From: a bacterium OL-1
Lineage (GTDB): Bacteria > Actinomycetota > Coriobacteriia > Coriobacteriales > Atopobiaceae
Length of the DNA stretch: 64,000 bases
Direction: 5' to 3'
NCBI GenBank assembly: GCA_000752675.2
Contig: LM994627.1
Coordinates: forward strand, 127,767 to 191,766
The translations under genes were made by a program, and so were the position numbers. How positions within the stretch are numbered: position 1 is the first letter of the stretch; each line of letters starts with the position of its first letter. Below, piece by piece: positions 15,946 through 38,460 of the stretch. The notes under the pieces were generated by a model. That model had not been told where the DNA came from, did no database searches, and worked only from the letters and a program-made list of their open reading frames with translations.

Positions 15946-15947
15946 GC

Positions 15948-16839: not shown

Positions 16840-16847
16840 CACGGACA

Positions 16848-16871
16848 GCCCCGGAGCCAGAAATCCGGGGC
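16848..16871 (+). repeat. second hairpin after the endolysin gene
   Basis: Arms GCCCCGG (16848-16854) and CCGGGGC (16865-16871), followed by GCTCTT; a weak terminator at best. Confidence 0.5.
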
Positions 16872-16886
16872 GCTCTTACAGCGCAT

Positions 16887-16927
16887 ACCCCTCGGCCTCC
16901 CAACGGTGCTCAACTGAGGGGTCTTTT
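16887..16927 (+). terminator. terminator closing the lysis cassette
   Basis: Arms ACCCCTC (16887-16893) and GAGGGGT (16916-16922) followed by CTTTTCG. The rest of the gap to the chaperone gene at 17092 shows no gene. Confidence 0.6.
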
Positions 16928-17091
16928 CGTTTGCGCAGGTAGATGGCTCGCTGAGAGCCGTTCTAAGGCCCTGTTCTCAGGCCGGTGGACCAACAACACG
17001 TGGGACTCATACCAATCTTGGACGTACCCGGCGCGGGGGACACCCACCGGAACATGTTGCCGTGGCAAGTCAAGAGACCAGGAGGGTTCCC

Positions 17092-17481: not shown

Positions 17482-17705
17482 AGCTGGCCCGCTACACGGG
17501 TTCCGGCGTCATGGAGCTGCTGGGACTCGCGTGCGGGATGCCGATGCTCTTCGAGCAGGCGTACTACGACCTGTCCGAGCTTGAGGAGCGCGAGGCTCAG
17601 ACGCAGGCCCCCACGTGGAGGAAGAAGGGCGAGAAGGCCACCGACGCGCGTGACAGGCTGCGTGCCGAGCGAGAGGCGGCCAAGGCGCGTTTGGAGGCTG
17701 CGTAG
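17445..17705 (+). CDS. T-like extension of the tail chaperone, probable -1 frameshift product
   Basis: The frame is open from 17445 (after a stop at 17442-17444) to the TAG at 17703-17705, -1 relative to the upstream gene. An ATG at 17511 has no ribosome site, so translation by frameshift from the chaperone is more likely. The product reads LGLACGMPMLFEQAYYDLSE and then a charged helix (DRLRAEREAAKARLEAA), similar in kind to lambda gpT parts. The slip site must lie between 17445 and 17481; GAAAACCC at 17446-17453 is the only run there. No perfect heptamer is seen. Confidence 0.5.
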   Translation, partial: RKPYGFESRILVKLARYTGSGVMELLGLACGMPMLFEQAYYDLSELEEREAQTQAPTWRKKGEKATDARDRLRAEREAAKARLEAA

Positions 17706-17706
17706 C

Positions 17707-18144
17707 GTGTACACGATTGAGGTACAGGGGCTTGACGAGACAATCGCCCAGCTCAGGGAGCTTGACGGCAAGCTCGCGTCAGACCTCAAGAGGGAGATAA
17801 AGGGCATAGCGCAGCCGACGCTCTCCAAGGCGAAGGGGTTCGCCGGGGGCGTCGGCTCCTTCCCAACGGGAAGGTATGCCGCGTCGCTGTCGCTTAGGAC
17901 GTACGCGAACGGGGTCAAGTTCGTATCGAACGACCCAGGCGGAGGCGTCATCGAGTTCGCAAACCCAGGGGCGCTCATCCTCACCGGCGAGAGGGCAGGC
18001 AGGCGTGCGGGCGTGCCAGTTGGCAGCAACCCGCCCCGTGCGCTGCTCAAGGCAATCCTCGAGGACGAGGAGCACATAGTCGAGAAGGTCAACGAGAAGG
18101 TAGTCGAATACTGCGACTGGGACGTTGGGAGCATCCATGGGTAA
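17707..18144 (+). CDS. tail component, HK97 gp10-like, 145 aa
   Basis: GTG at 17707 one base after the T-like stop. MYTIEVQGLDETIAQLRELD and then KREIKGIAQPTLSKAKGFAG, followed by a TGRYAASLSLRTYANGVKFV beta hairpin and IEFANPGALILTGERAG, fit the gp10-like (minor tail, tail terminator region) fold. It overlaps the tape measure start by 8 bases. In HK97-like phages this gene normally lies before the tube gene, so its place here after the chaperone is a small rearrangement. Confidence 0.55.
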   Translation: MYTIEVQGLDETIAQLRELDGKLASDLKREIKGIAQPTLSKAKGFAGGVGSFPTGRYAASLSLRTYANGVKFVSNDPGGGVIEFANPGALILTGERAGRRAGVPVGSNPPRALLKAILEDEEHIVEKVNEKVVEYCDWDVGSIHG

Positions 18145-21100
18145 GGCATCTATCACAATTGCCATCGGCGCTCTCTGGAACGGCCAGGACCAGCTCAACA
18201 AGGTCAGCAACGATGTGTCACGCATCGCGCTCCTCACCGCAAAGTCAAGCGTGTCGACCACGCGCGACCTTGCGATGCAGGGTGAGAGCTGGGTCGACCT
18301 AGGAAACAAGATTTACGATGCGGGCACGAAGATTGAGAACGTCGGGAACACGCTCACCAACGCGATAACCGTGCCGATGACCAAGGTGGGCGGATACTGC
18401 GTCGACCAGGCAGTTAACTTCGACACGGCAATCGCCAACCTGCGCAAGACATCGGACCTCACGGCGGACCAGCTTGAGGCCATGGGGCAGGCGGCAATCG
18501 ACGCCTCGACCAAGCAGCCCGTCGACGCCGCCACAATCGTGAACATCGAGGCGCTCGGCTCACAGCTCGGCGTCGCGGATGACAACCTGCAGTCGTTCGC
18601 GCAGACCGTCTCCGGCCTAGACATAGCGACGAACATGGACGCCGACACCGCCGCCACCGAGATGGCACGCTTCGCCAACATCACTGGCATGTCCGAGGAC
18701 GTGTTCTCTAACTACGGCTCCACAATCGTCGCCATCGGCAACAACATGGCAACCACCGAGTCGGATGTATCGTCGCTGGCGCTGCGCTTTGCGTCGGCTG
18801 GCACCGCAGCGGGCATGTCGCAGGCGGACATCCTTGGCATGTCCGGCGCACTGTCATCGCTCGGCGTCAAGGCCGAGATGGGCGGCTCGGCGCTCTCGCA
18901 GACCGTGAACGCAATCAGCGTGGCCGTGTCCACCGGCGGTGACAGCCTCGACGCATTCGCCGAGAAGGCCGGTATGAGCGCGGACGAGTTCAAGGCCGCG
19001 TGGGAGCAGGACGCCGCAGGCACGTTCAACACGCTCGTGGAGAACATGGGCAAGTCCGTTGCCGCTGGCGAGGACGTGAACGTGATGCTCTCCGACCTCG
19101 GAATCACGGGAATCCGCCAGTCGGACGTGATGCGAAGGCTCGTGGACTCCACCGAGGCCGTCACAGGCAAGCAGTCCGTCCTGGCTGGCGCACTCGACCT
19201 CTCGCGCAGCGCGTGGGAGGAGAACACGGCGCTGCAGACCGAGGTCGACCAGCGAAACGAGTCCATGCAGTCGCGCCTTGACGTGCTCAAGAACAAGGTC
19301 GACGCCGTTGCGATAACCGTTGGCACCCCGCTCACGGACGCCCTCATTGACGCCCTAGACGCGCTGCAGCCCCTCTTCCAGGGCGTGGCGGACGCGGCGC
19401 AGGCGTTCGCCGACATGGACGAGGAGGACCAGCGCACGATTCTCTCGCTTGCGGGCGTGGTGACGGCGGCTGGCCCGGTGCTCTCAGTGGCAGGCAAGCT
19501 CGTCCAGGGAATCGGCAACGTCAACACGGAGTTCGGCAAGACGCAGGAGAAGATAGCCATCTACGGTGACGCCCTCGACACGGTGGACGGCTCGCAGATG
19601 CGCCACTACGCCAGCTCAAAGGAGCTTGCGGCGCAGCTCGGCTCGGTGCAGAACTCCGCCGCGAAGGCCGCTGGCGGTGCGGAGAAGTACGTGCACGCCT
19701 GGGAGGGCATGACCGACTCGGCGAAGGTCGTGCGCGACAACACCGAGAAGATTGCCGACCTCACATACAAGATGGACAACCTCGGCGAAGGCTCGGACAA
19801 GACGAAGGAGAGCATCCGCAAGCAGATAGCCGCGCTTGAGGACCAGACCGCAGCGGCCCAGGACTCCTACGAGAAGAACGCCGCGCTGGTCACCACCTGG
19901 TCCAAGTCATCGTCCGAGGCCGAGAAGGCCGCGAGCGGCATCGGCGGACTCACCGAGAGCCTCGGGAAGGTGAAGGCCGGGGCTGTCGACGTGTCGAAGG
20001 AGCTTAGCGCGGCCACTAGCACGGCAAGCAGCGCCACGTCCACGTTCGGCACCAACCTGGCGAACGGCTTCAAGCTGGCGGCAAGCTCTGCGGTGGACAT
20101 GGCTAAGAACTTTGCCATCGGTGCCCTGCAGGCGGGTGCGATAAGCCTCGCAATCGCGGGCGTCACGGCTGTCGTTGGCCTCCTCGTGTCATCCTACGAG
20201 GAGCAGAAAGAGAAGGCAGAGAACCTTGAGAAGGCCACTGACGGCCTCACTGACGCCACGAACAAGAGCATCAAGGCCGCTCAGGACCAGGGCATCGCCT
20301 ACCAGGGCAACAAGGTGTCCCTCAGCGACGCACGCGATGCCGTCGACAAGGCAATCGAGTCACAGGCCAAGCTCGCGGACACGATTAATGACGGAAACTC
20401 GCAGGCGTCGGCGCAGATGGGCCAGCTGCAGGCCGCGTACTCGGTCATCAAGGAGTACGCGAACCAAACGGGCCTCGGCGCGGACGAGCAGGGCAGGCTC
20501 AAGGCTGCGGTAGAGACGTTCAACGACATCGCAGGCACCCAAATCGAGGTCACCGACGCCGTGAACGGCAAGCTCTCCGAGAACGGCGAGGCAATCGACA
20601 ACGTGTCAACCAAGCTCGGTGACTACGTCCAGCAGAAGCTTGAGCAGATTAAGGTCGACGCCTACCAGGAGAGGCTAACGCAGCTCTACCAGCAGCAAGC
20701 CGAGGACATCGAGGCGCTCGCCAAGGCTCAGAAGGCGTACAACGACGAGATGGACCAGTACGGCTCCAAGTCCGAGTACGTCCAGGACTACGTTGACAAG
20801 AACAAGAACCTGCAGGAGCAGCTTGGGTACACGGACGAGCAGATGCGAAACATGGCCTCGTCAATGTACGACGCCAACGCAGCCAGCGCCGCAGCGAAAT
20901 CTGGGCTAAACGACGCGAAGGACGCCCTGGACACGATTAACGGCTCAATCTCGAACACCGAGGCCGCGCTGGGTTCCGCCACCGCAATCGCGGACGGCTT
21001 CTCAGGCAGCGTTGTCAACTTCGCCCAGGCGAGCACGGCCATCAGCAGCGCGTGCGAGGGCTGCAACGTCGACCTGCAGGAGTTCGCCAAGAGCCTCTCC

Positions 21101-22630
21101 GACACGGGACTCTCCGTGGAGCAGCTCGGTGACATAAACGACAGCGAGTGGACGCAGATTGTCGCTTCATACGACGGCAACTCGCAGTCAATCATCGACT
21201 CCCTTAACCAGCTCGGCATCGACATGGGAGACTCCGGTGACCGAGCGGTGCAGGCGCTCTCGGACGGCCTCCTCAGCGGGAGAGACGGAGTGGGAGACGC
21301 CGCGTCTCAGCTCGTGCAGGAGGCGAAGAACGGTGACTGGTCCGGCCTCGTCGCGGACATGCGCGACCATGGATTCGACATCCCGGAGGAGCTTGCCTCC
21401 GCGCTTGAGTCCAACAGCGGCGCTCCCAGCGATGCCGCGTACCACATGCTCTCTCTCGTGGCGCTCAAGCTCTCCGGCGGTGACCTCACCGAGGCCGCGA
21501 ACATCCTCGGCGGTGACATCGACGCGGGACTTGCCGACGGCATCGCAAACGGCACGCTCTCCGAGGAGGAGGCCGCGCTGCTCGGAGAGGACGTGCTTGA
21601 GAAGGCGAAGGAATCGCTCGACTCGCACTCTCCATCCGTGAAGTTCTACGAACTCGGCTCTGACGTTGACGCGGGCCTCGCCAACGGTATTGACGAGAAC
21701 AGCGATGGCCCCAAGACAAGCTCCGCGAACCTCGGGCAGGCGGTGCTCGACGGCATCAGCGACCTCGTCAAGAACATGACGGACGTAGGCTCGAACTCCG
21801 GCTCCGGCCTCAACTCCGGCCTGCTGTCCTGGCTAAACCCCGTCAAGAGTTCTGGCTCGTCGCTCAAGCAGGGCGCGGAGAGCGGCGTGAACGGCACCGC
21901 GAAGGACCTCTCGACAGAGGGCAGCAGTGCGGGCAAGCTGTTCTCCGGTGGAATTGCGGCCTACGTAGGCAGCGCGTCCTCAGCTGGCTACGGCCTCTAC
22001 TCCGCAGTGACCGGGGAGACATCCGGTACGGCCAGGACGCTCGGCGGATACGGCAGCGACGCCTCGGGCAAGTTCGCCTCCGGCATCGGGGCCAACTCCG
22101 GGAGGGTGCTCGCGCAGGCGAACGCCATCGCCAACAACGCGATGATGGCCGGGAACTACGGCAACTCGTACGTGTGGGGCACGCACCTGTCCGGGAACTT
22201 CGCCTCGGGCATCAGCGCGGGGCTCGGCTGGGTGAGGGACGCCGCGAACAGGATAGCCAGCGCGGCTGCGAACATCCTGCACTTCTCGGTGCCAGACGAG
22301 GGTCCCTGGTCCGGCTCCGAGCGCGGCGGCGTGACCTCCGGCATGCACCTCGCGCAGAACATCGCAAGCGGCATGGAGCGCGGCATCCCCGAGGTGAGGC
22401 GTGCTGCGCTTGCCGTGGCTGACGCGACGAGCGTGCCGGTGCCGTCGCTCGGGGCACGCGCCGTGGGCGGCTACGGCTCCAAGTACGGGGACCGTGGCGG
22501 GAACATGACCACGAACAACTGGAACCTGACAATCAACGGGGCGCAGCTGCGCGATGCGTCACCGAGGGCGCAGGAGCTTATCGGCGAGCTGTTCGGCGAG
22601 TTCGGCATGGTTGCCGACATGGGGGTATAG
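18137..22630 (+). CDS. phage tail tape measure protein, TP901 type
   Basis: ATG at 18137 (MGKASITIAIGALWNGQD) after GGGAG, overlapping the previous stop. About 1,497 aa. The TP901 core is visible around residues 75-330 (VDQAVNFDTAIANLRKTSDL, ALGSQLGVADDNLQSFAQTV, GMSEDVFSNYGSTIVAIGNN, GGSALSQTVNAISVAVSTGG). Coiled coils follow, a hydrophobic membrane-type segment near residue 660-690 (IGALQAGAISLAIAGVTAVV), and a C-terminal repeat-like part. It sets tail length and may be injected with the DNA. Length suggests a tail of roughly 200 nm by the usual rule of 1.5 angstrom per residue. Confidence 0.9.
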   Translation: MGKASITIAIGALWNGQDQLNKVSNDVSRIALLTAKSSVSTTRDLAMQGESWVDLGNKIYDAGTKIENVGNTLTNAITVPMTKVGGYCVDQAVNFDTAIANLRKTSDLTADQLEAMGQAAIDASTKQPVDAATIVNIEALGSQLGVADDNLQSFAQTVSGLDIATNMDADTAATEMARFANITGMSEDVFSNYGSTIVAIGNNMATTESDVSSLALRFASAGTAAGMSQADILGMSGALSSLGVKAEMGGSALSQTVNAISVAVSTGGDSLDAFAEKAGMSADEFKAAWEQDAAGTFNTLVENMGKSVAAGEDVNVMLSDLGITGIRQSDVMRRLVDSTEAVTGKQSVLAGALDLSRSAWEENTALQTEVDQRNESMQSRLDVLKNKVDAVAITVGTPLTDALIDALDALQPLFQGVADAAQAFADMDEEDQRTILSLAGVVTAAGPVLSVAGKLVQGIGNVNTEFGKTQEKIAIYGDALDTVDGSQMRHYASSKELAAQLGSVQNSAAKAAGGAEKYVHAWEGMTDSAKVVRDNTEKIADLTYKMDNLGEGSDKTKESIRKQIAALEDQTAAAQDSYEKNAALVTTWSKSSSEAEKAASGIGGLTESLGKVKAGAVDVSKELSAATSTASSATSTFGTNLANGFKLAASSAVDMAKNFAIGALQAGAISLAIAGVTAVVGLLVSSYEEQKEKAENLEKATDGLTDATNKSIKAAQDQGIAYQGNKVSLSDARDAVDKAIESQAKLADTINDGNSQASAQMGQLQAAYSVIKEYANQTGLGADEQGRLKAAVETFNDIAGTQIEVTDAVNGKLSENGEAIDNVSTKLGDYVQQKLEQIKVDAYQERLTQLYQQQAEDIEALAKAQKAYNDEMDQYGSKSEYVQDYVDKNKNLQEQLGYTDEQMRNMASSMYDANAASAAAKSGLNDAKDALDTINGSISNTEAALGSATAIADGFSGSVVNFAQASTAISSACEGCNVDLQEFAKSLSDTGLSVEQLGDINDSEWTQIVASYDGNSQSIIDSLNQLGIDMGDSGDRAVQALSDGLLSGRDGVGDAASQLVQEAKNGDWSGLVADMRDHGFDIPEELASALESNSGAPSDAAYHMLSLVALKLSGGDLTEAANILGGDIDAGLADGIANGTLSEEEAALLGEDVLEKAKESLDSHSPSVKFYELGSDVDAGLANGIDENSDGPKTSSANLGQAVLDGISDLVKNMTDVGSNSGSGLNSGLLSWLNPVKSSGSSLKQGAESGVNGTAKDLSTEGSSAGKLFSGGIAAYVGSASSAGYGLYSAVTGETSGTARTLGGYGSDASGKFASGIGANSGRVLAQANAIANNAMMAGNYGNSYVWGTHLSGNFASGISAGLGWVRDAANRIASAAANILHFSVPDEGPWSGSERGGVTSGMHLAQNIASGMERGIPEVRRAALAVADATSVPVPSLGARAVGGYGSKYGDRGGNMTTNNWNLTINGAQLRDASPRAQELIGELFGEFGMVADMGV

Positions 22631-25393
22631 ATGGCAGAGTCATGGGGCAACAGCATAAGCACGTCCTCCGGTAACTACTGGCAGGTGGGCGTCAACGCCT
22701 ATGTCACGAGCACCACCGACGAGTACGTGTACATCCACGTGGACGCGAAGGTGTACACGCGCTGGCCGTTCAACGTGTACGCCAACGGCTCGGCTGGCAG
22801 CACCAACGACGAGACGCGCTACTGGTCCGGCTCGCTCAACCAGGGCAACGGCGCCACCACCACATACATCTCGTACGACACCTATTTCATGAGGTACTAC
22901 GGCCAGGACAGGACCGTGCAGGTGTGGGCGCAGTACAACGTCACCGGCGGATACGGCAACGGCACCTCGAACGCGAGCGTGAGCCTCTCGATACCGGCTC
23001 GACCGTACAGCACGCCGAGGCCACCGAAGAACGCCACGGTCACGAGCAACAGCGACGCGAGCCAGACCGTCTCGTGGGGCACCGACTACACCGGCTCCGA
23101 TGACGCCTACCCGTGGTCGAGCGTGAGCATCGCAAGGCTCACGGACGGCACCGGTGACTGGGCGCAGCTAGGCACCGTGAGCTGGGACGTTACCTCGTTC
23201 ACCGACACAACAACGTCCGCCAACCACAAGTACCTATACAACGTCTGGTCTAACAACCCGGCTGGAAGCTCGACGCACGTCTCTGCGGGTGACGTGCGCA
23301 CCACGCCCGCCGCGCCATCGTCGGTCTCGGTGGCGAGGAACAGCGACACGTCCTGCACCGTCAAGGTGTGGGCTGGCAGAAACGCCTCCAACTCCGCGAC
23401 CAGCACGCTCGTAAGGGTGTCGGTGGACAACGGCCCGTACGTCGACGTGTCCAGCCAGAGCAGCCTCTCGCCAAGCGTCAACTACACGACCGCCGTCGGC
23501 CACAAGTACGTCTTCGCGGCACGCCACAGCAACTCGAAGTATTCGAGCGGCTGGGTGTACACGAGCGCCTACTACACGACGCCGCAGGCACCGACCAACG
23601 CAGCGGCCACCTACAAGAGCGACACGTCGGTGCTCGTCAAGTGGGCCAACCCATCCACGGCGTCGGTGTCGTGGGGCGGCGCTCGCATACTGCGCTCCGT
23701 GGACGGCGGCTCGTTCGCGCAGATTGCCACAGTCGGCAACTCAGTCACGAACTACACTGACACCTCCACGAGCGCGGGCCACTCCTACGCATACCAGGTT
23801 GTCGCGTACACGCCCACGGGACTCACCGCCTACGCGCAGACCGGCACCGTGTACACCACGCCCACCGCGCCAACTAGCGTGAGCGCCATCTCGACCGGAG
23901 CGACATCCGTGAGCGTGGCGGCAACCGGCTCGTCCGCGTACGTCGACGGCTACCAGTTCGAGCACCGCGTGGGCGCGGACGGCGAGTGGGGCGAGACCGT
24001 CACGCAGTCCTCGGAGACCGCGCACATGGCCTCCGCAGCCGGTGACAACTGGTACCGCGCACGCGCCTACAAGGGGACGCTCTACTCTGCGTGGACGGCC
24101 ACCACCGGAAGCATCGTTACCATGGCGCAGCCGCTCGCCCCGTCCGTCTCCGTGCCGTCGCTCGCGCCGTCCGGCACGTCGGTCACCGTGTCGTGGACGC
24201 CGAACCACCCGGATGGCTCGGCAATCAGCGCGTCCCAGGTCGAGGTCACGGACCCCAGCGGCACCGTGAGCACGACAGGCGTGACCGGCACGGCAATCTC
24301 GACCACCGTCACGGTCTCCTCCAAGGGCACCTACTCGTTCCGCGTGAGGACAAAGGGCCTGTGGGCGGAGTCCAACGACGGCTGGGGACTCTGGTCCGAC
24401 TCGTCCGTAACCAACGTGTACGACCTCCCCAGCGTCGAGGTAACGTCGGGTGACTCGGTCGACCGCATGCCGTTCACGGTGACGTGGTCCGCGACCGACG
24501 AGACCGGCATCACCGCGCAGTCCGTGACCATCACGGACGCCAACGGGACCGCCCTGTTCTCGGCGAACCCGGCCACCGGCGTCTCCTCGGTCACCGTAAC
24601 AACGGATGACATGCTCCCAGAGAACGGCGCGACGTACACCGTCTCGGTCACCGTGCGCGGCGGCTCGTCCTTCACCAACTCGGCGAGCAAGGCGTTCACG
24701 GTGGCGTGGACATCGCCGAACGCACCCATCGCGGAGGTGCTCACCAACACGGACGCGCTGTACGAGGTGGTGACCGTCAAGAGCGGGGACGCCACCGGGA
24801 GCGTCACCACATCCTACTTCACCGTTGAGCGTATTAACCCGGACGGCACCACCGTCATGCTCGACGCGAGCGTGTCAAGCGGCCAGACCCTCAACGACTA
24901 CCTGGTGCCGCTCAACGTCGACTTCGCGTACCGCGTCACGGCGGTCAGCGATTCCGGGGCCTCGTTCAGCCGCGACTACAAGGCGTTCGTCGCGTCGGAC
25001 GGCAGCGAGGCGTTCAACTTCGGCAGCGACGGCGGCACGTGCGTGAGGCTCGCGTACGACGCAAAGGCGAGCGCGAGCGTGACGCACAGCGGCGAGTCCT
25101 ACCACTTCGCGCTCGGCCCCAACACGCCGAGCCTCCCGACGTTCTACCCGGACGGAAACACGGACATCAGCGGCTCGCGCTCGTACGTGCTGTACGGCTC
25201 GTCTGACTACACGCGCCTGCGCTCCATCGTGCGCGACCACCGTTCGGCGATGTGCTGGCTCAGGGACTTCTACGGTGGCGTTCACCGCGTCTACGCCAAG
25301 TTCACCCTCGGCTACGAGGCGGGCACGTACGACCAGTTCTCGGTCTCCGCCGACGTGACCGAGACCGTGTGGGAGGAGCCTGTCCGTGGCTAG
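22631..25393 (+). CDS. long tail protein with repeated fibronectin type III domains, 920 aa
   Basis: ATG follows the tape measure stop directly. The first 130 residues are a beta-rich head with many Tyr and Ser. From about residue 135 come four or five FN3-like repeats with recurring openings (PPKNATVTSNSD, APSSVSVARNSD, APTNAAATYKSD, APTSVSAISTGA) and closings (VRTTP, AYYTTP, VYTTP), then two more Ig/FN3-like units and a C-terminal part (SDYTRLRSIVRDHRSAMCWL) with a distal-tail feel. FN3 repeats in tail proteins often bind surface sugars. It probably combines distal tail and adhesion roles. Confidence 0.75.
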   Translation: MAESWGNSISTSSGNYWQVGVNAYVTSTTDEYVYIHVDAKVYTRWPFNVYANGSAGSTNDETRYWSGSLNQGNGATTTYISYDTYFMRYYGQDRTVQVWAQYNVTGGYGNGTSNASVSLSIPARPYSTPRPPKNATVTSNSDASQTVSWGTDYTGSDDAYPWSSVSIARLTDGTGDWAQLGTVSWDVTSFTDTTTSANHKYLYNVWSNNPAGSSTHVSAGDVRTTPAAPSSVSVARNSDTSCTVKVWAGRNASNSATSTLVRVSVDNGPYVDVSSQSSLSPSVNYTTAVGHKYVFAARHSNSKYSSGWVYTSAYYTTPQAPTNAAATYKSDTSVLVKWANPSTASVSWGGARILRSVDGGSFAQIATVGNSVTNYTDTSTSAGHSYAYQVVAYTPTGLTAYAQTGTVYTTPTAPTSVSAISTGATSVSVAATGSSAYVDGYQFEHRVGADGEWGETVTQSSETAHMASAAGDNWYRARAYKGTLYSAWTATTGSIVTMAQPLAPSVSVPSLAPSGTSVTVSWTPNHPDGSAISASQVEVTDPSGTVSTTGVTGTAISTTVTVSSKGTYSFRVRTKGLWAESNDGWGLWSDSSVTNVYDLPSVEVTSGDSVDRMPFTVTWSATDETGITAQSVTITDANGTALFSANPATGVSSVTVTTDDMLPENGATYTVSVTVRGGSSFTNSASKAFTVAWTSPNAPIAEVLTNTDALYEVVTVKSGDATGSVTTSYFTVERINPDGTTVMLDASVSSGQTLNDYLVPLNVDFAYRVTAVSDSGASFSRDYKAFVASDGSEAFNFGSDGGTCVRLAYDAKASASVTHSGESYHFALGPNTPSLPTFYPDGNTDISGSRSYVLYGSSDYTRLRSIVRDHRSAMCWLRDFYGGVHRVYAKFTLGYEAGTYDQFSVSADVTETVWEEPVRG

Positions 25394-26528
25394 CTTCGAC
25401 AGCACGTACTGGAACAGGAGAATCGCCTTCACGCGGTACCGCTTCGCCATGGTCTCCCGCGCGACCGGGCTTGAGCTTGACTCGGACGTGCCGGTGCTCG
25501 GCGGCGGCACCATCACCAGGAACGACGATACACGCATCAAGGAGAGCGCGGATGTGTCGCTTGCCAGCGACTATGACTTCGGCCCGAACTTCCTGCGCGT
25601 CTTCCTCGACGCCGAGTGGGACGATGGCGCGAGCGTCGAGGTGCCGCTCGGCACCTTCCTCCCCGTGGTGCCGTCACGCAGCGTGAGGAACACCGCCTCC
25701 ACATACTCGGTCAAGCTCTACGGACGCCTGCAGGAGCTTCTCGATGACAGCTTTGCAGCGCCGACAACCGTGCCAGCTGGCACCAACGCCGTGGACTACG
25801 CGGCCTCCGTGTGCCGTGGCGTCGGCCTCGAAGTTATCGCGGACTCGTCTGACTACAAGACCACCAACGTCCGCATGTACGGCATCGGGGCGGAGCAGAA
25901 CAACTCAGAGACCGGGTCCACGAAGCTCGACTGCGTGAACGACCTGCTCTCGCTGGCGAACTTCCGCGCGGCGATTACCGACGAGATGGGCCGCGTGGTG
26001 CTCAAGAAGTACCGCGACCCGGCGGAGATGCCGATATCGTGGTCGTTCGTGGAGGGGCCGACCGCCAAGTTCGTGGGGGAGTTCAGCGAGGAGCGCGACT
26101 ACACCAGCGCCGCGAATCACGTCATCGTGCGCTACGGCTCCCTGAGCGACGGCACCGGCAAGGTTATCGTCGGCGAGGCGTGGGACACTGACCCGGCGAG
26201 CGACCTCTCCACGGTGTCGCGCGGACGCACGATTACCACCGCGTACACCTACCAGGACCTGCCGGAGGGCAAGACCGACGCCGAGATGACCACCTACGCC
26301 AACGCCCGCGCCAAGTCGCTCCTGAGCACGGCGCAGTCGATAATCAAGCGCGAGACGTTCACCCACACCTACGCGCCCGTGGGAATCAACCAGGCAATCA
26401 ACATCGACTTCCCCAGCGGGGACGTGACCGGTAGGTTCCAGATAAGGACGCAGACCATCAGGCTCGTGGGCGGTTGCCCCATCGAGTGCGAGGCGCGAAT
26501 CTTCAGGAGGAGGGCGAGCAATGGCTGA
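25386..26528 (+). CDS. minor tail / tail hub-like protein, 380 aa
   Basis: GTG at 25386 overlaps the previous gene by 8 bases. The layout, with LYGRLQELLDDSFAAPTTVP, then FVGEFSEERDYTSAANHVIV and a beta-rich end (IDFPSGDVTGRFQIRTQTIR), fits baseplate hub proteins of siphoviruses (gp27/Tal-like fold) that close the tube tip. No peptidase motif is seen. The position between the distal tail type protein and the fibre supports this; family assignment is by context. Confidence 0.6.
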   Translation: MASFDSTYWNRRIAFTRYRFAMVSRATGLELDSDVPVLGGGTITRNDDTRIKESADVSLASDYDFGPNFLRVFLDAEWDDGASVEVPLGTFLPVVPSRSVRNTASTYSVKLYGRLQELLDDSFAAPTTVPAGTNAVDYAASVCRGVGLEVIADSSDYKTTNVRMYGIGAEQNNSETGSTKLDCVNDLLSLANFRAAITDEMGRVVLKKYRDPAEMPISWSFVEGPTAKFVGEFSEERDYTSAANHVIVRYGSLSDGTGKVIVGEAWDTDPASDLSTVSRGRTITTAYTYQDLPEGKTDAEMTTYANARAKSLLSTAQSIIKRETFTHTYAPVGINQAINIDFPSGDVTGRFQIRTQTIRLVGGCPIECEARIFRRRASNG

Positions 26529-27483
26529 GCTGTCGCGCGAGGAGTCTAGCGCCATGCGCTCGATAGGGCGCGAGACTGCGGCACGCATCGCAAGGATTGC
26601 CGAGGACGCGGCGAGGAGCGCGGGAATGTCGCGCACGTTCGCAACTGTGACCAAGGTCAACTCTGACGGCACCGTAGAGGTCGACTTCGGTGACTCGTCG
26701 CACCCCATGAGCGTCGGCGCGATTCGCGTGACCACGGACTGCGCCGGGGCCAGCGTGGGTGACGTGGTGGTGGTAGACACTTTCGCCTACGTGCCGCTCG
26801 TGACCGGCATAGTGAGCACCGGTAAGAACGGTGTGCTACCGATATCGCACGGTGGCACCGGGGCCACGACGGCTGCTGAGGCGTTCAAGGCCATCACAGG
26901 GGGATACACGCTCGACCTCGGCACCGAGGACAACAACGACACGTGGCTCCCGGTGCTCAACGGTTCGAAGATTCAGCACAGATGGATACCGACGTTCCCG
27001 CTACCGGTCGCGCAGGGCGGCACTGGGGCCACGAACGCGGCTGCGGCCATAAGCAACCTGGGACTTAGCGATGAGTATCTGTCACAGCATGGACTTGGCG
27101 GGAACAATGGCTATGTCAGTGACGTTGACTCCGCCACAACTCCGGGAAAATACTTTTTAACTACCAATACGAAGAACATGCCAAGCGGCATTACGTGGGC
27201 ATTGCTTTTCGTATCGAAGACAGGTGACTGGATTAACCAGACAATCATCAATAACTACCTCAACAGCGGGAAACTCGTGTACACGAGGACTAAGGCAGGC
27301 AATCAAGAATGGGCTTCGTGGCAGTCGCTTGGGGCGGTAGGCAACAAGTCACTTACCCCCGTGTACCGCCTGCACAACCCATACGACAAGTGCTACATGT
27401 TTACGGATAGCGCATCCGAGTACAACAGACTCGTCTCGGAAGGGTGGTCTGGCGAAGGCACGGCATTCTATGCGTTCTCCTAG
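26521..27483 (+). CDS. tail fibre / receptor-binding protein with GGTGAT repeats and DUF5648-like end, 320 aa
   Basis: ATG at 26521 overlaps the hub gene. An N-terminal helix and an OB-like part (ATVTKVNSDGTVEVDFGDSS) attach to the baseplate. Two HGGTGATTAAEA / QGGTGATNAAAA motifs, typical of phage fibre shafts, lie near residues 112 and 170. The C-terminal 45 residues (PVYRLHNPYDKCYMFTDSAS, then WSGEGTAFYAFS) match the DUF5648 type beta-trefoil-like module of wall-bound and fibre proteins. Base composition of 27,100-27,340 is clearly more AT-rich than its neighbours, suggesting exchange of the receptor-binding end. Confidence 0.75.
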   Translation: MAELSREESSAMRSIGRETAARIARIAEDAARSAGMSRTFATVTKVNSDGTVEVDFGDSSHPMSVGAIRVTTDCAGASVGDVVVVDTFAYVPLVTGIVSTGKNGVLPISHGGTGATTAAEAFKAITGGYTLDLGTEDNNDTWLPVLNGSKIQHRWIPTFPLPVAQGGTGATNAAAAISNLGLSDEYLSQHGLGGNNGYVSDVDSATTPGKYFLTTNTKNMPSGITWALLFVSKTGDWINQTIINNYLNSGKLVYTRTKAGNQEWASWQSLGAVGNKSLTPVYRLHNPYDKCYMFTDSASEYNRLVSEGWSGEGTAFYAFS

Positions 27484-27865: not shown

Positions 27866-28060
27866 ACGTTTTATGTCCCAACCATGTCCCAAGTGGTGAC
27901 GCTTCTCACCGTTGTCGCACCTACCCAACCGTATACATGCACGTTGTGTGCCCACTCGTATCCACCAAAGCTACAATGGTAAAATAGGTGAGTTAGCTCT
28001 AGTGATGTAGTCGGTCTACGCCCACGGCGCTTGCCTGGGACTGGCGGGTCGGAGGTGCTT
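27866..28060. other. prophage right boundary region
   Basis: No gene. A short direct repeat ATGTCCCAA at 27873-27881 and 27884-27892 lies right after the last phage gene. The switch from phage to chromosomal genes happens here, so the right attachment site should be in this stretch; it cannot be fixed without the left end. TAAAAT (27980-27985) is a possible -10 for the next gene. Confidence 0.4.
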
Positions 28061-29416
28061 GTGGCTGAGGACGCCGAGAAGAACGCTCCTGTGGCGCAAA
28101 AGCGCCCCAAGGCTCCAAAGCCGCAGGTCGTTGGCGCCAAGGTGAGTGTCGGCAAGCCAAAGCCCAAGGCTGCCCCCAAGGCCGCCGCCGGCGCCGCCAA
28201 GACTGCCGGCGCCGCCCAAAAAGCTGCGACGGGCGCGGGCGCAAAGGTCAAGTACCGCGTCAACGCCGCGAAGGCGGTCTCCGCACAGGACCGCGAGGCC
28301 GACAAGCAGAGCATGGGCCAGGTGCACAAGAGCCTGGCGTTTCTCGGCATCGTCACGCTTGCCTACCTGGCGTATCTCATCTTCTCCGGCCAGATGGACG
28401 TGTTTCTCAGCAGCCTCTCGCAGGTCGACAGCTCGTGGATCCTGCGTGGCGCCCTCTGCTACCTGGTCTATTACGTGATTGGCGTCTCGGCCTACGTGCT
28501 CTCGGTGATCACGGACCCCAACTCTCCCGTTGGCGTACGCGACCTCATGAGCGTTGAGGCGGCAGGCATCTTCTTCATGAACCTCACGCCCAACGGCATG
28601 GGCGCCGCGCCCGCGCAGATCTACCGCCTTACCCGCTCGGGCCTTTCCGTTGGCGGCGCCGGCGCGCTCCACTCCACGCGCTTCATCATGTACGAGGCGG
28701 GCGAGGGCATCTTTGCGGCCATCATGCTCATCTTCCGGCTTGACTACTTCCTCAACTCCTTTGGCGACTTCATCATCATTGGCATCCTGCTCTTTGCCTT
28801 CAAGATTCTGGAGTGCGTGGTGCTGTTTGCCATCTGCGCGTACCCCAAGTTCTTCTCGAGCATTGGCAACTGGGTTCTGCGCTTTGCCAACAAGCACGGT
28901 TGGGTGAAGGACTACGACCACTGGTACCAGGTCGTGAACAACCAGATCATGGAGTTCTCCGACGGCTTCAAGTCTGCCGCCAAGAACAAGGGTGACCTCA
29001 TTGGCGTGCTGGTGCTCACCCTGCTGCAGCTGGGCTGCCTCTACGCGCTGCCGTGGTTTGTGCTCAATGCCTTTGGCAAGGAGGCCGACCTCATCACCTG
29101 CCTGGCGTCCGGCTCTATGCTCGAGCTGCTCACCTCCGCCATCCCGCTGCCTGGCGGCACCGGCGGCGCCGAGGGCGGCTTTGCGCTGCTCTTTGGTGGG
29201 ATGTTTGGCGCGCAGGCATCGGCGGGCTTCGTGCTGTGGCGCGCCATCGAGTACTTCCTGCCCACGCTGTGCGCGGCGCCGCTCCTGGGCCTGCGCTCTA
29301 CCAGTGGCGAGAGCATCAACCACCGCTTCAAGCGCTACGGTGTGCGACTCCGCAGGCTCTTCTCACGTAGAGGCGGCGGCAAGGGCTCTGACGGCATCAA
29401 GATCACGTTCAAGTAG
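28061..29416 (+). CDS. lysylphosphatidylglycerol synthase TM-region-like / flippase-like membrane protein
   Basis: GTG at 28061 after GGAGGT is preferred to the TTG at 28031. 451 aa. The first 80 residues are rich in Ala, Lys and Pro and cytoplasmic. Then 8 or so membrane helices follow (SLAFLGIVTLAYLAYLIFSG, LRGALCYLVYYVIGVSAYVL), with the family's conserved FFMNLTPNGMGAAPAQIYRL and the end PLPGGTGGAEGGFALLFGGM, which mark the LPG_synthase_TM (UPF0104) family. Members flip or synthesise modified phospholipids, or act in glycolipid export. Without a C-terminal LysX or MprF domain its substrate cannot be named. Confidence 0.8.
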   Translation: MAEDAEKNAPVAQKRPKAPKPQVVGAKVSVGKPKPKAAPKAAAGAAKTAGAAQKAATGAGAKVKYRVNAAKAVSAQDREADKQSMGQVHKSLAFLGIVTLAYLAYLIFSGQMDVFLSSLSQVDSSWILRGALCYLVYYVIGVSAYVLSVITDPNSPVGVRDLMSVEAAGIFFMNLTPNGMGAAPAQIYRLTRSGLSVGGAGALHSTRFIMYEAGEGIFAAIMLIFRLDYFLNSFGDFIIIGILLFAFKILECVVLFAICAYPKFFSSIGNWVLRFANKHGWVKDYDHWYQVVNNQIMEFSDGFKSAAKNKGDLIGVLVLTLLQLGCLYALPWFVLNAFGKEADLITCLASGSMLELLTSAIPLPGGTGGAEGGFALLFGGMFGAQASAGFVLWRAIEYFLPTLCAAPLLGLRSTSGESINHRFKRYGVRLRRLFSRRGGGKGSDGIKITFK

Positions 29417-31627: not shown

Positions 31628-31949
31628 CGTTGCACCTCGATAATCCCGGTTTTGACCCATCTGAATGCCCGCCTCGTTCATTCTTGTGCCCCAAAGGTGG
31701 GGTGTCCCCGGAAAACCGTATTCCAACCGTTAGATTGTGCCAATGCATCGTCTGGGGCAGCACTCCCGGCGGTCCGGTAGGCGCTCTATTTTCGCACGGC
31801 TAAGGATGAGACGAACAAAAGCCCAGGTCGACACAAACCTTAATCCCGACCGTGCGTAGTTCGGGAAAGGGAAGAGCTCTGGACAGCAAGTTTCGGTGGT
31901 GCTCGACCTTCCCAGCAATGCATGCGAAGCACAAATCAGCGTACACGTG

Positions 31950-31978
31950 TTCTCATTCTGCTTGCGAGGGAGTAGAAT
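31950..31978 (+). promoter_or_regulatory. promoter of the TerB-ATPase-helicase cassette
   Basis: TTCTCA (31950-31955), 17-base spacer, TAGAAT (31973-31978). Transcription would start near 31985, leaving a short leader before the TTG at 32018. The rest of the gap from 31628 shows no gene. Confidence 0.55.
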
Positions 31979-32017: not shown

Positions 32018-33886
32018 TTGGACGGGGACGGTACGAGCCACTCAACAAATCGCACGCGCTCGCGTGCCGAGGAGGTTCTTGAGCAGATTCTTGCCTCGAA
32101 GGATGGGCGCTCCTTCATCAAGATGAGCCAGAATACCTACTCTGAACAGCCAATCCTTCGTACGGGCGCAGACTTTGCTCGCGAGCGCGCAATGCGGCGC
32201 CAAGAGGGGCGTGAAGCCGCGCGCAATGCCCGCGAGCAGCGCGTCGAGAGGCGGCACCAGCAAGCGAGCGTCTCTTCATCTACTTGGGGATCGTCCGCTG
32301 TTCCCGAGTCTGCGCAGTCGGCATGGCCGTCGTTCTCGTTTGTAATGCCGTCCTTCTTCGCGGAAGACAGCGCGGAGCTTGCAGATTCCGAGCTTCCTCC
32401 CACGCTGCAGGAGCTACGGCACCTGGAGAAGGAGAATCTGCGTCCGGGCGAGCTCTTCTGTCGTCAAGCCCGCCTTGCTGCAAAGTTCGAGGACAGCCTG
32501 CCTTTTGAGGGCTTTCATCCCTATCGCTACCTGCCAACATACAAGGATCTTGGTAACCGAGAACTACGCGGGTACTTCACCTGGCGCGCGTCCTGGCGTC
32601 GCGGCACAGCCGGCGATGCGCCGGCAACCTACGTCACCATCCTTGCATTTGAGCTCATAAACGGCGTGGGGGCCACCCCGGGGTCCGAGGTTCTCGTCTG
32701 CTTGAGGAAGCTCGAGCAGCGCTGCGCCGAGCAGGACGCGCGCGGCATTGGTCCCAGTGTGACGATGGACCTCCGACGCTGGGAGCGCGACTACGTCATC
32801 TGTATGGGTCTTGACGTCCAGCAGACGGTCACGGAGGCAGACCGCGCATTTGGCGCCGGCGTTGAGACGCTGCGGGCCATGGAGCGCGCCGAGCTCTCCT
32901 CCCGCGGACTTCTCAAAGACCAGCAGGCAGAGAAGGTGCCCGCCCCAACAGACGATGAAGTCGTGGTGGCGATGGGCAACGTCTCTACCATGGACATCTC
33001 TCGCTCGCCCTTCGTCCGCGCGCACCGTGAGTCCTTCGCTGCCGTTGCCGCCGCCGTGGCGCGACGCATGGCGGTGCACTGCAACCGGCGCCGGAAGACG
33101 GGATGGGTCGACGGCCTGGTAGGCCACCGCACGTCGTGGCCGTTCACGCCCCTGGCGGGCGTTCCGCTTGAGCACGGCTGGGAAGGCCCCGAGCGTACCG
33201 TTCGCGTTTGCCCCGGCCAGACGGTAAGCTTCCGCTTTGGTCGCTGGACGGAGCGGCAGGCGTACTCCACCACCGAGCGAAGCCGCGAACTGGCGCGTCT
33301 CCTGCGGGCCATCGATCGCCAGATGGGCATCGACTGGGACTTTGGCCATCCCCTCAAGGAGCAGGTGCTTCCTCGCTACCTCCAGAAGATGGTTGCGGAG
33401 GAAAGCCAGGCGCAGCACGAGCGCGAGGAGGAGGCCGAGAGGCGTCGGTTCAAGGTCGACCTCTCCAAGCTGGGCAGCATTCGCAGCGCTGCAGCTGTCA
33501 CGCGCGAGGCGCTCCTTGTGGACGAGGAGCGCGAGGGATACGTTCCTGGTGACGCTGCGGCGGAGCCCGCTGCCATGGCGCCAACGCCGGAGCCCGCGGT
33601 TGCGCCTCCGGCGCCGGCAACTGTATCCGTGTCGGCAGCCGCTCCCGCGCCGCAGCCGGCAGGGACGGATCTCGGCCTTACCGCGCAGGAGCGCGCCCTT
33701 CTCGACGCGCTTCTCACGCACAAGGAGGCCCCTGCCACCGCGGGAACGTCCCTCGACATGCTTGTCGACTCAATCAATGAGAAGCTCTTTGACCTCGTGG
33801 GAGATACGGTGCTGGAGTTTGGCGGCGCCGGCCCCACCCTTGTCGAGGACTACGAGCAAGACCTGAGAGGATATCTACAGCCATGA
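32018..33886 (+). CDS. TerB_N / TerB_C domain protein
   Basis: TTG at 32018 is 6 bases after GGAGG (32007-32011) and fits the promoter at 31950-31978; an ATG at 31991 lies almost at the transcript start and has no ribosome site. 622 aa. After a charged disordered N-terminus, the TerB_N domain runs from about residue 130 (RPGELFCRQARLAAKFEDSL, YLPTYKDLGNRELRGYFTWR, YVTILAFELINGVG). A Pro/Ala-rich linker (about 495-545) leads to the TerB_C end (LDMLVDSINEKLFDLVGDTV and LVEDYEQDLRGYL). TerB domains are linked to tellurite and stress systems and to DNA-processing cassettes. Overlaps the ATPase gene by 4 bases. Confidence 0.8.
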   Translation: MDGDGTSHSTNRTRSRAEEVLEQILASKDGRSFIKMSQNTYSEQPILRTGADFARERAMRRQEGREAARNAREQRVERRHQQASVSSSTWGSSAVPESAQSAWPSFSFVMPSFFAEDSAELADSELPPTLQELRHLEKENLRPGELFCRQARLAAKFEDSLPFEGFHPYRYLPTYKDLGNRELRGYFTWRASWRRGTAGDAPATYVTILAFELINGVGATPGSEVLVCLRKLEQRCAEQDARGIGPSVTMDLRRWERDYVICMGLDVQQTVTEADRAFGAGVETLRAMERAELSSRGLLKDQQAEKVPAPTDDEVVVAMGNVSTMDISRSPFVRAHRESFAAVAAAVARRMAVHCNRRRKTGWVDGLVGHRTSWPFTPLAGVPLEHGWEGPERTVRVCPGQTVSFRFGRWTERQAYSTTERSRELARLLRAIDRQMGIDWDFGHPLKEQVLPRYLQKMVAEESQAQHEREEEAERRRFKVDLSKLGSIRSAAAVTREALLVDEEREGYVPGDAAAEPAAMAPTPEPAVAPPAPATVSVSAAAPAPQPAGTDLGLTAQERALLDALLTHKEAPATAGTSLDMLVDSINEKLFDLVGDTVLEFGGAGPTLVEDYEQDLRGYLQP

Positions 33887-35268
33887 CGCAAGCAACCAAA
33901 GAGCAGGCGCCGCGCGTTCCTCGGCGCATCGCTCAGGTGATCATCAATTCCCTGAAGGGCGGCGTCGTCCCGCGCGTGGGGCTGCCCTACATCACCGTTG
34001 GCCGTGATCGCGAGGTTGCCGCCCTCTTGCATGACCTCGACCTCGTTGCCGATGGCGGTGCCAGCTTCCGCTTCCTGGTGGGCCGTTACGGCAGCGGTAA
34101 GAGCTTCCTGCTCCAGACCATCCGCAACCACGCCATGGGCAGAGGCTTTGTTGTGGCAGACGCAGACCTCTCGCCCGAGAGGCGCCTGCAGGGCACGGGC
34201 GGCCAAGGTCTCGCCACCTACCGGGAGCTCATTCGCAACCTCAGCACCAAGACCAGGCCCGAGGGCGGCGCCCTCAACCTGGTGCTCGACCGCTGGGTCT
34301 CCAACGTGCAGTCACAGGTGACGCTCGAGGACGGCCTCACCCCGGAGGACCCGGCGTTTGCCGATGCCATGGAGCGGCGTATCATGGGCACCATGGCCTC
34401 GGTGCAGGAGCTGGTTCACGGCTACGACTTTGCGCGCCTTCTCACCATGTACTGGCGCGCCCACCTCGAGGGTGACGACGAGACCAAAGCCAACGTCACC
34501 AAGTGGTTCCGTGGCGAGTACCGCAACAAGACCGAGGCCCGTCGCGAGCTGGGCGTCGGCATCGTGATTGGTGATGAGGACTGGTATGACTACCTCAAGA
34601 TTCTTGCGACCTTCCTTGTGGGGGCCGGCTACAAGGGCCTTGTCATCCTCCTTGACGAGATGGTGAACCTATACAAGATTCCCAACGCGGTGAGCAGGCA
34701 GTATAACTACGAGAAGGTGCTCACCATGTACAACGACACGCTCCAGGGCAAGGCTCACCACCTGGGCATCATCATGAGCGGCACGCCCCAGGCGGTGGAG
34801 GATAGGCGGCGTGGGCTCTACTCGTACGAGGCGCTGCGGAGCCGTCTCACGCAGGGGCGCTTCTCGCAGGACGGCCTGGTGGACATGCTGGCGCCAGTCA
34901 TCCGCTTGGAGCCGCTTACCCATGAGGAGCTGCTGGTGCTGGTCGAGAAGCTTGCGGACATCCACGCGGGGCTCTTTGGGTACCAGCGCACCATCACCCA
35001 GGACGAGCTCGTGCGCTTCCTCGAGACCGAGTATGGTCGTGTGGGCGCGGACTCCCACCTCACCCCACGCGAGGTCATCCGTGACTTTGTCGAGATGCTC
35101 GACATCCTCTCACAGAACCCCGGCGTTACGGTTGAGCAGCTGCTTGGCAGCGAGCAGTTCACGTCGCCGGTGAAGGCGCCGGTGGAGCAGGACACGGCGT
35201 CTTTTGCTGCGCCAGGAGGCGGGCAGGCTCCAGCCGCGCAGGACGAGTTTGCCGAGTTCGACATCTAG
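33883..35268 (+). CDS. P-loop ATPase of the BrxC/BrxD (DUF2791) family
   Basis: ATG at 33883 overlaps the previous stop (ATGA). 461 aa. It starts PRRIAQVIINSLKGGVVPRV, then the Walker A loop GRYGSGKSF (residues 68-76) and Walker B VILLDEMVNLYKI with a later sensor segment HHLGIIMSGTPQAVEDRRRG. The front motif and length are those of BrxD-type ATPases, the small ATP-binding partners in BREX-related defence loci. It probably forms a complex with the helicase and TerB protein on DNA. No full BREX set (PglZ, PglX, BrxL) is nearby. Confidence 0.8.
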   Translation: MTQATKEQAPRVPRRIAQVIINSLKGGVVPRVGLPYITVGRDREVAALLHDLDLVADGGASFRFLVGRYGSGKSFLLQTIRNHAMGRGFVVADADLSPERRLQGTGGQGLATYRELIRNLSTKTRPEGGALNLVLDRWVSNVQSQVTLEDGLTPEDPAFADAMERRIMGTMASVQELVHGYDFARLLTMYWRAHLEGDDETKANVTKWFRGEYRNKTEARRELGVGIVIGDEDWYDYLKILATFLVGAGYKGLVILLDEMVNLYKIPNAVSRQYNYEKVLTMYNDTLQGKAHHLGIIMSGTPQAVEDRRRGLYSYEALRSRLTQGRFSQDGLVDMLAPVIRLEPLTHEELLVLVEKLADIHAGLFGYQRTITQDELVRFLETEYGRVGADSHLTPREVIRDFVEMLDILSQNPGVTVEQLLGSEQFTSPVKAPVEQDTASFAAPGGGQAPAAQDEFAEFDI

Positions 35269-35274
35269 GCCGCC

Positions 35275-37686
<2,412 letters not shown>

Positions 37687-37689: not shown

Positions 37690-37717
37690 GAACAAATGTT
37701 CTCATACGTGGTACGAT
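37690..37717 (+). promoter_or_regulatory. LexA-like SOS box and extended -10 promoter
   Basis: GAACAAATGTTC (37690-37701) fits the GAAC-N4-GTTC LexA operator of Gram-positive bacteria. Eight bases on is an extended -10, TGG TACGAT (37709-37717). LexA bound here would cover the -35 region, so the next gene should be induced by DNA damage. Confidence 0.65.
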
Positions 37718-37854
37718 ATCCTCGCAAGGAATGAAGCCACCCCGGAGGCCCCCACTGGCACGTGATGGCGCACCTCTCCCTTGTTAAGCAACGCTCGAGC
37801 GTGGTCGGCGACGGCCGGCCTCCTGTCGGTTGTTCGAGGTTTGGGGGCACTCAT

Positions 37855-38460
37855 ATGTCTGGTTATCAGGAGAGTTTGGTCAAGATTAGCTGCTTGGCAG
37901 AGGCGGCTGGCATTCGCAAGGCATTTGAAGAGCAGAAGGTTCCATTCTTCCGCATGCATGGGGTTGAGCGGGCTATCCGGGATGTGAGTCCAGACCTCCC
38001 GTCCAGAGATGGCGACATGCTCTGTCTGCCTCGCATTCCCATACGGGTGGGAGACCTGTTTGTGGTGCTGTGCGGAGACCGGCATCCCTATCAGTTCTGT
38101 AGCGGAAGATGGTTCTACATCGATGGGCTTGCCGATGCCGTGCACGAGAATTACCGCTCCTACCTTGTCCCCGTTGATGAGGGTAGCGTTCGCTCCTCCT
38201 GGGGTGACAATGCCCGTCTTGCCCAGCGTTCGTACGTGAACTGGAAGGACTACCTCGCCAACATCGAGACTACCTGGGACAGAGACGAGGTTGACCCAAG
38301 GGCGCGGTTCGCGGAGGTCGTCTATGGTATTGGCGCAACTCCGCCTGCAAATATGGGGATAGACCCAGATCCCATCTACGCCATCGCGCGGATGCTTCGA
38401 GAACGTGGAATCACGGGAGCAATTGTCAACGGCAAGGTTCCGATGGAGGACATTATGTAA
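37855..38460 (+). CDS. uncharacterised protein under a LexA-like box, 201 aa
   Basis: The ATG at 37855 gives MSGYQESLVKISCLAEAAGI; an upstream GTG at 37762 adds 31 residues that do not look like protein. No known domain is evident. Visible features: a predicted helical start, a beta-rich middle (GDLFVVLCGDRHPYQFCSGR and WFYIDGLADAVHENYRSYLV) and a C-terminal helix (DPIYAIARMLRERGITGAIV). No membrane segment or catalytic motif. It has its own SOS-type promoter just after the helicase stop and may be a damage-induced partner of that cassette or an independent SOS gene. Confidence 0.7.
   Translation: MSGYQESLVKISCLAEAAGIRKAFEEQKVPFFRMHGVERAIRDVSPDLPSRDGDMLCLPRIPIRVGDLFVVLCGDRHPYQFCSGRWFYIDGLADAVHENYRSYLVPVDEGSVRSSWGDNARLAQRSYVNWKDYLANIETTWDRDEVDPRARFAEVVYGIGATPPANMGIDPDPIYAIARMLRERGITGAIVNGKVPMEDIM

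What the first reader, a model, noticed from the sequence alone, without database searches (positions are those of the whole stretch)
32018..37686. TerB protein, BrxD-type ATPase and Lhr-like helicase in one operon: candidate DNA-processing or anti-phage cassette
Seen: three genes overlapping or 6 bases apart behind one promoter; clear TerB_N/TerB_C ends, Walker A and B in the ATPase, and all helicase motifs. Known: BrxD (DUF2791) and Lhr-like BrxHI are partners in some BREX types, and TerB domains occur in stress and DNA-processing systems. No PglZ, PglX, BrxL or methylase is nearby, so this looks like a stand-alone set. Inference: a translocase complex acting on foreign or damaged DNA.
Basis: partly seen in the sequence, partly recalled or inferred. 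Interest (0 to 1): 0.8.

Follow-up and report, generated by a model that had tools for sequence, protein, structure and literature searches.

The report
Shango defence genes, vertically inherited, SOS-linked
The three genes are the known anti-phage system Shango; the unusual part is that in this group of bacteria it looks like a resident, conserved chromosomal function, with a DNA-damage (LexA-type) control site at its promoter, rather than like a travelling defence cassette.

Summary
In detail: three + strand genes (32018-33886, 33883-35268, 35275-37686), 4-bp overlap, then a 6-bp gap. PADLOC names them SngA, SngB, SngC of Shango (1.8e-56, 3.1e-193, 3.5e-272), a published anti-phage system (PMC10250203, passages). 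So 'anti-phage cassette' is right in kind, but known. New is how it lives here. In the host family the trio occurs in 83 of 104 species, all or none (SngB unseen in one), each genus wholly positive or negative; a second family has 57 of 58 (family read from handle numbers); in a phylum sample 1 of 27 hits lies elsewhere. Gene order is often broken (compact in 35 of 83), yet the trio stays. SngB and SngC are constrained like HisRS. In 8 of 8 genus members a box like those at this genome's lexA promoter lies at the sngA promoter and at that of a fourth gene. Most likely: a vertically inherited, SOS-inducible Shango; SngB loads helicase SngC, SngA senses. Phage activity and LexA binding are untested; the box is missing from most other genera examined.

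The parts
31941..31952 (+). LexA-type box GTACACGTGTTC at the sngA promoter, 20 bp before a -10-like TAGAAT (31973-31978)
   Evidence: 10 of 12 box positions invariant in 8 genus members, against 3 of 60 upstream and 17 of 48 downstream positions; same form as boxes at the own-genome lexA promoter. LexA binding not shown.
32018..33886 (+). sngA: TerB_N/TerB_C protein, TTG start; mechanical ORF starts at 31991
   Evidence: Pfam, PADLOC SngA 1.8e-56, conserved GGGGAGGT-TTG start
33883..35268 (+). sngB: ATPase, PF10923 (BrxC/BrxD family)
   Evidence: Pfam 3.2e-170, PADLOC SngB 3.1e-193
35275..37686 (+). sngC: Lhr/BrxHI-like SF2 helicase
   Evidence: Pfam DEAD + Helicase_C, PADLOC SngC 3.5e-272
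37690..37701 (+). LexA-type box GAACAAATGTTC upstream of orf4
   Evidence: Only GAACNNNNGTTC in the window with 0.85 expected by chance, so the case rests on conservation as GAACAARTGTTCT in 8 of 8; the longer form shared with sngA (TGTTCTCAT) is kept at orf4 in 4 of 8
37702..37854 (+). conserved, possibly structured 5' leader of orf4; GCCCCCA can pair with TGGGGGC next to the start codon
   Evidence: Alignment and consensus fold of 8 species; almost no covariation (1 of 33 pairs); no Rfam match
37855..38460 (+). orf4: 201-aa protein of unknown family, possible co-regulated partner
   Evidence: Open in 8 of 8 genus members, dN/dS 0.08-0.15; no Pfam, PHROG or PADLOC match

Best explanation
The three genes are a canonical Shango system (SngA TerB-type protein, SngB ATPase, SngC Lhr/BrxHI-like SF2 helicase). 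Shown here by computation: family identity, intact motifs, strong purifying selection on SngB and SngC in the genus, near-fixation and largely vertical inheritance within genera of the host family, retention of all three genes even where the operon is broken, and in the host genus a conserved box at the sngA and orf4 promoters of the same form as those at this genome's lexA promoter. Inferred: LexA represses both transcripts; after DNA damage (phage replication, prophage induction, fork collapse) Shango rises; SngA, the fast-evolving member with a weak winged-helix-like match at its C terminus, recognises the target or an infection cue; SngB, by analogy with the loader role proposed for BrxD, loads SngC; SngC moves on and remodels or takes apart the aberrant or phage DNA. 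No nuclease family was matched in the trio (Pfam), so loss of phage DNA would come from unwinding or from host nucleases.
For: Identity: PADLOC SngA/B/C, Pfam; the SngA model rings in 0 of 14 control genomes. Function of the family: plaque and liquid assays by Johnson et al. (passages). Fixation: SngA 8 of 8 in the genus; SngA 83, SngB 82, SngC 83 (after dropping four Lhr-like hits) of 104 in the family, same genomes; 18 of 18 multi-species genera uniform, at most 14 in 20,000 shuffles; 57 of 58 in a second family (family limits read from handle numbers). Vertical: genera are clades in 11 of 11 (SngC), 10 of 11 (SngA) and 8 of 11 (SngB) cases. Constraint: dN/dS sngB 0.04-0.08, sngC 0.03-0.06, hisS 0.04-0.09, sngA 0.14-0.22. 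Control box. Loader analogy: proposed for BrxD-BrxHI (PMC12839542, section 24). SngA C terminus: Z 5.9 over 70 residues to 2fxa.
Against: No phage or damage phenotype could be tested. The box pattern was not found upstream of sngA in 19 of 19 second-family genomes and in 25 of 34 host-family genomes of the tree set, so SOS control, if real, is not general. GAACANNTGTTC is not enriched in the own genome (5 sites, 6 for the reversed control). Congruence with RpoB is partial: 10, 16 and 14 of 27 splits shared by SngB, SngC and SngA, so some exchange between genera is likely. One genus member (L004, a MAG) has sngC broken in frame. SngA fold matches are weak (no Foldseek hit at E 0.001 or less).
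Confidence: 0.66

Rival explanations
1. An ordinary mobile anti-phage cassette that happens to sit here, as Shango does in P. aeruginosa hotspots and on plasmids.
For: Relatives of SngB lie on 680 of 72,556 plasmid records, 539 predicted conjugative, all under 60% identity; Shango is common in a defence hotspot of P. aeruginosa; a prophage-like module ends about 4.5 kb upstream in the window.
Against: Near-fixation by genus, shared site in genus relatives, genera as clades, non-defence neighbours, no match to SngB in 50,697 phage records.
Confidence: 0.12
2. Domesticated genome-maintenance machine: in this lineage Shango mainly repairs or restarts host replication, and anti-phage action is secondary or lost.
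For: Retention of loosened or split genes as a set, HisRS-like constraint on SngB and SngC, lexA-type box at the promoter.
Against: SngA evolves fast (mean tree distance 4.6 times RpoB, 2.7 times SngB, 2.0 times SngC), as expected in an arms race; 11 of 28 genera of the family lack the system.
Confidence: 0.3
3. A degraded or stand-alone BREX type 2 module (BrxD + BrxHI).
For: BrxD 189 bits and BrxHI 398 bits in PADLOC; PF10923 shared with BrxC/BrxD.
Against: SngB 641 and SngC 903 bits; NCBIfam BrxD equivalog cut-off missed, 191 of 350; SngA is a TerB protein; no other BREX gene in the neighbours scanned.
Confidence: 0.02
4. The promoter boxes belong to another palindrome-binding repressor, not LexA.
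For: The extended form WACANNTGTTCTCAT occurs only at sngA and orf4 in the own genome, so a dedicated regulator is possible.
Against: The lexA promoter carries GAACATCTGTAC, GTACATTTGTTC and GAACATTTGTTT, the recA promoter GAACGGGTGTTC: same form; the extension is not kept at orf4 in 4 of 8 species.
Confidence: 0.2

Closest known systems
Shango (SngABC)
   Same: All three proteins and gene order A-B-C; PADLOC models match over nearly their whole length for SngB and SngC, positions 63-525 of 528 for SngA
   Different: Near-fixed and largely vertical in two families of the order, often loosened or split, lexA-type box and fourth gene in the host genus
BREX type 2 BrxD-BrxHI dyad
   Same: PF10923 ATPase next to an Lhr-like SF2 helicase (section read)
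   Different: Much lower scores; a TerB protein in place of the other BREX genes
Lhr-type helicases (solved relatives 5v9x, 7lhl; also YprA 6znp; the Lhr label of the first two is recalled)
   Same: SF2 helicase core
   Different: 803 aa; NCBIfam equivalog cut-offs missed by far. A Hachiman paper puts SngC with BrxHI, DruE and DpdJ (passage)
Hachiman (HamAB)
   Same: Helicase defence system that senses DNA damage (start of abstract; passages on Shango)
   Different: Two genes with nuclease HamA; the HamB model gives only 47 bits to SngC

Membership tests
Shango | SngA with TerB N- and C-terminal domains | tested here: met
   Pfam and PADLOC; both domains in 46 of 46 aligned proteins (chosen from 63 listed, plus the window)
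Shango | SngB ATPase of the PF10923 family | tested here: met
Shango | SngC Lhr/BrxHI-like helicase | tested here: met
Shango | Three genes side by side | tested here: met
   In the window; in the family compact in 35 of 83
Shango | Anti-phage activity | not testable with these tools
   Shown by others for the P. aeruginosa PA14 copy (passages), not for this one
BREX type 2 | BrxD equivalog score | tested here: not met
   191 bits, cut-off 350
BREX type 2 | Other BREX genes nearby | tested here: not met
   None in the thirteen neighbours scanned; not every ORF of the window was scanned
LexA/SOS regulon | LexA-type operator at the promoter | tested here: met
   By likeness only: form shared with own lexA and recA promoters, conserved in 8 of 8
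LexA/SOS regulon | LexA binding and damage induction | not testable with these tools
   Needs EMSA and RT-qPCR

The most novel reading that the evidence does not exclude
In the host family and a second family of its order Shango has been domesticated from a mobile defence cassette into a core chromosomal DNA-surveillance machine, SOS-controlled in part of the clade and extended there by a co-regulated fourth protein (orf4); the loosened but always complete gene sets are a natural experiment showing that SngA, SngB and SngC work only together.
Probability: 0.3. Interest if true: 0.75.

Novelty: new member of a known kind. Interest (0 to 1): 0.5.

Why it matters
One survey lists the mechanism of Shango as unknown (PMC10855318, passages), and no solved structure matches SngA or SngB by sequence. 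A lineage that keeps Shango as a nearly universal, constrained and possibly SOS-controlled function offers a host in which gene removal should have a phenotype, points to DNA damage as a likely inducing signal, and gives more than 150 species with co-evolving, sometimes unlinked SngA/B/C sets for complex prediction. It also questions the habit of reading every Shango hit as a mobile defence-island gene.

Tried and rejected
New defence system: rejected, PADLOC names all three proteins. BREX remnant: rejected. Defence cargo between split Sng genes: in the 14 loci listed the inserts look by eye like transporters, lipoproteins, an acyltransferase, surface and metabolic proteins, with a few toxin-antitoxin-like pairs; no family search was run on them, so 'not defence cargo' is an impression. 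Full host-tree congruence: not met at deep nodes. General SOS box: rejected; not found in 19 of 19 second-family upstream regions nor in the outsider G348, found in 9 of 34 host-family genomes, two of them (G009, G036) at odd places next to or inside the gene start. Over 62 loci plus window 23 have the box (shuffles mean 0.1, largest 2; 47 of 4,624 control tiles, which include some of the true sites). orf4: AlphaFold2 model useless (mean pLDDT 35); one weak viral relative, 35% over 63 aa; none on plasmids; no meaningful NCBIfam match. SngA fold: no confident PDB match. SngC hits in G017, G020, G026 and G027 were dropped from the count as Lhr-like proteins (open frames 1613-1749 aa, 208-254 bits). 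SngB on viral contigs: none. Mistakes put right: gene models at 28016-29323 and 37856 were in the wrong frame, so the orf4 identities are not used; RpoB of two genomes was first taken as a longer ORF and corrected; RpoB of G011 and G098 is partial. Papers: Shango with Coriobacteri or Collinsella gave 4 papers each, by title about gut microbiota and colorectal or colon cancer, not read; I take the Shango matches there to be other words. Shango with LexA: one paper, passages show unconnected uses. Searches list only part of what they found.

Full report
What is there. Three + strand genes lie at 31991(32018)-33886, 33883-35268 and 35275-37686. The start at TTG 32018 is preferred: -10-like GTAGAAT, GGGGAGGT and TTG are kept in 8 of 8 genus members. 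Proteins: TerB_N + TerB_C; PF10923; DEAD + Helicase_C. PADLOC names them SngA, SngB and SngC at 1.8e-56, 3.1e-193 and 3.5e-272, well above BrxD and BrxHI. The NCBIfam BrxD equivalog cut-off is missed (191 of 350 bits). This is Shango. Johnson et al. 2023 (PMC10250203, passages only) describe the same trio in P. aeruginosa PA14, cloned it in PAO1 and saw 10-100 fold plaque reduction for many, not all, phages, and protection in liquid; they cite a parallel report for E. coli (Millman et al. 2022 by recall, not seen).

Host and site. The nearest named relatives are Tractidigestivibacter and Olsenella (SngB 98-91% in L002-L008). I take family code f1 as Atopobiaceae, f3 as Coriobacteriaceae and f4 as Eggerthellaceae; that is inference from such matches and titles. 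The left neighbours (an LPG-synthase-TM-like gene, an LDH/MDH-type dehydrogenase, a DUF389 protein) and right neighbours (orf4, a membrane protein, a 262-aa protein, a HisRS-type gene) recur around Shango in L002-L008, with gaps in L004 (contig end) and L008 (no DUF389 match) (labels; 'membrane protein' by eye). A prophage-like module fills about 9-27.5 kb of the window.

Distribution. SngA: 8 of 8 in the genus and 83 of 104 in the family. SngB 82 of 104. SngC 87 of 104 at 1e-60, of which four are long Lhr-like proteins with 208-254 bits and were dropped, leaving 83, a few of them in pieces. The genomes coincide; the one without SngB (G068) is an assembly of about 260 contigs. In 18 of 18 genera with more than one species presence is uniform; 20,000 label shuffles reached at most 14; this shuffle ignores that genera themselves are related. 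In the order SngB is found in 155 of 272 at 1e-100: 81 f1, 57 f3, 11 f4 and 6 others; f3 spans handles G105-G162, so 57 of 58, counting the unlisted G135 as f3 from its number. In 396 genomes drawn over the phylum 27 have SngA at 1e-20: 9 f1, 17 f3, 1 other. So fixation belongs to two families, not to the phylum.

Gene order. Distances are between profile matches. Of 83 positive genomes 35 have both gaps at 400 bp or less on one strand; 69 have all three on one contig, so 34 of these 69 are loosened or split, several by only 0.4-1.2 kb; 14 cannot be judged because of contigs or a missing hit. In G073 sngA lies 1.17 Mb from sngBC; in L029 sngC is inverted. Three plasmid copies that I looked at (of 680 records) are compact A-B-C. 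Retention as a set without tight linkage argues for joint function and against transfer as a cassette in this clade. Against a perfect picture: in L004 (= G007, a MAG) sngC is not open in one frame.

Inheritance and selection. With 30 genomes, Sng trees recover genera as clades in 8 (SngB), 11 (SngC) and 10 (SngA) of 11 cases; RpoB 11 of 11. Distances correlate with RpoB (r 0.34, 0.51, 0.51 for B, C, A; 0 of 999 permutations as high), but only 10, 16 and 14 of 27 splits are shared: vertical within genera, unresolved or partly exchanged deeper. Pairwise dN/dS against seven genus relatives: sngB 0.04-0.08, sngC 0.03-0.06 (for L004 its larger piece only), hisS 0.04-0.09 (six relatives), sngA 0.14-0.22, orf4 0.08-0.15; several dS values are near or above 1, so the ratios are rough.

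Control region. All 8 genus members carry GTACANNTGTTCTCAT at the sngA promoter and GAACAARTGTTCT at the orf4 promoter. At sngA 10 of 12 box positions are invariant, against 3 of 60 upstream and 17 of 48 downstream positions. The extended form WACANNTGTTCTCAT occurs twice in the own genome, exactly at these two promoters, and 0 times reversed; at orf4 the extension is kept in 4 of 8 species. Own lexA has GAACATCTGTAC, GTACATTTGTTC and GAACATTTGTTT upstream; own recA has GAACGGGTGTTC 50 bp before its start. Over 62 upstream regions (window and 61 loci) 23 carry G[ACT]ACANNTGT[AGT]C against 0.1 in shuffles; relatedness makes these far fewer than 23 independent cases. In the genome set the pattern is found in G001, G006, G009, G011, G036, G039, G040, G098 and G103 (9 of 34; G009 and G036 at odd places), but not in f3 (0 of 19) or G348. 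Against: the plain GAACANNTGTTC pattern has 5 sites in the own genome versus 6 for the reversed control, and its other four sites are not at lexA or recA, so a box alone proves nothing; the claim rests on position, conservation and likeness to lexA.

Mechanism. SngB and SngC resemble the BrxD-BrxHI dyad, for which helicase loading has been proposed (PMC12839542, section 24). A Hachiman paper places SngC with BrxHI, DruE and DpdJ in a possible clade of defence helicases (PMC12278908, passages). The SngA model (46 sequences, mean pLDDT 81, pTM 0.60) ends in a winged-helix-like domain (residues about 556-631; Z 5.9, 70 residues, 3.5 A to 2fxa; Z 5.5, 63 residues, 2.7 A to the RuvB C terminus), a common arrangement at that Z, so only a hint of DNA contact. 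I therefore propose SngA as sensor or adaptor, SngB as loader, SngC as motor; each step beyond family identity is inference.

Verdict. A known system in a new evolutionary and regulatory setting. Identity about 0.97; near-fixation with vertical inheritance within genera about 0.9; SOS control in the genus about 0.75; the mechanism above about 0.4.

Noticed in passing
window 9176-27483: Prophage-like module: portal, major capsid, tail tube, tape measure and tail/fibre proteins, ending about 0.5 kb before chromosomal genes conserved around Shango in the genus.
   Followed up: partly
window 37702-37854: Highly conserved, possibly structured 5' leader of orf4 whose GCCCCCA can pair with the TGGGGGC next to the start codon; no Rfam match, possible new regulatory RNA.
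   Followed up: partly
L170 2905-3237: Short ORF on a viral contig shares CGDRHPY and about 35% over 63 aa with orf4, hinting at a phage-related domain.
   Followed up: partly
L173 1-9721: Sulfitobacter plasmid carries sngABC directly followed by a PD-(D/E)XK nuclease and a UvrD-type helicase gene, which could supply a nuclease to Shango.
   Followed up: no
L106, L107, L112: In three relatives a similar large membrane protein (start MSPLxKRLPR) sits between sngB and sngC.
   Followed up: no
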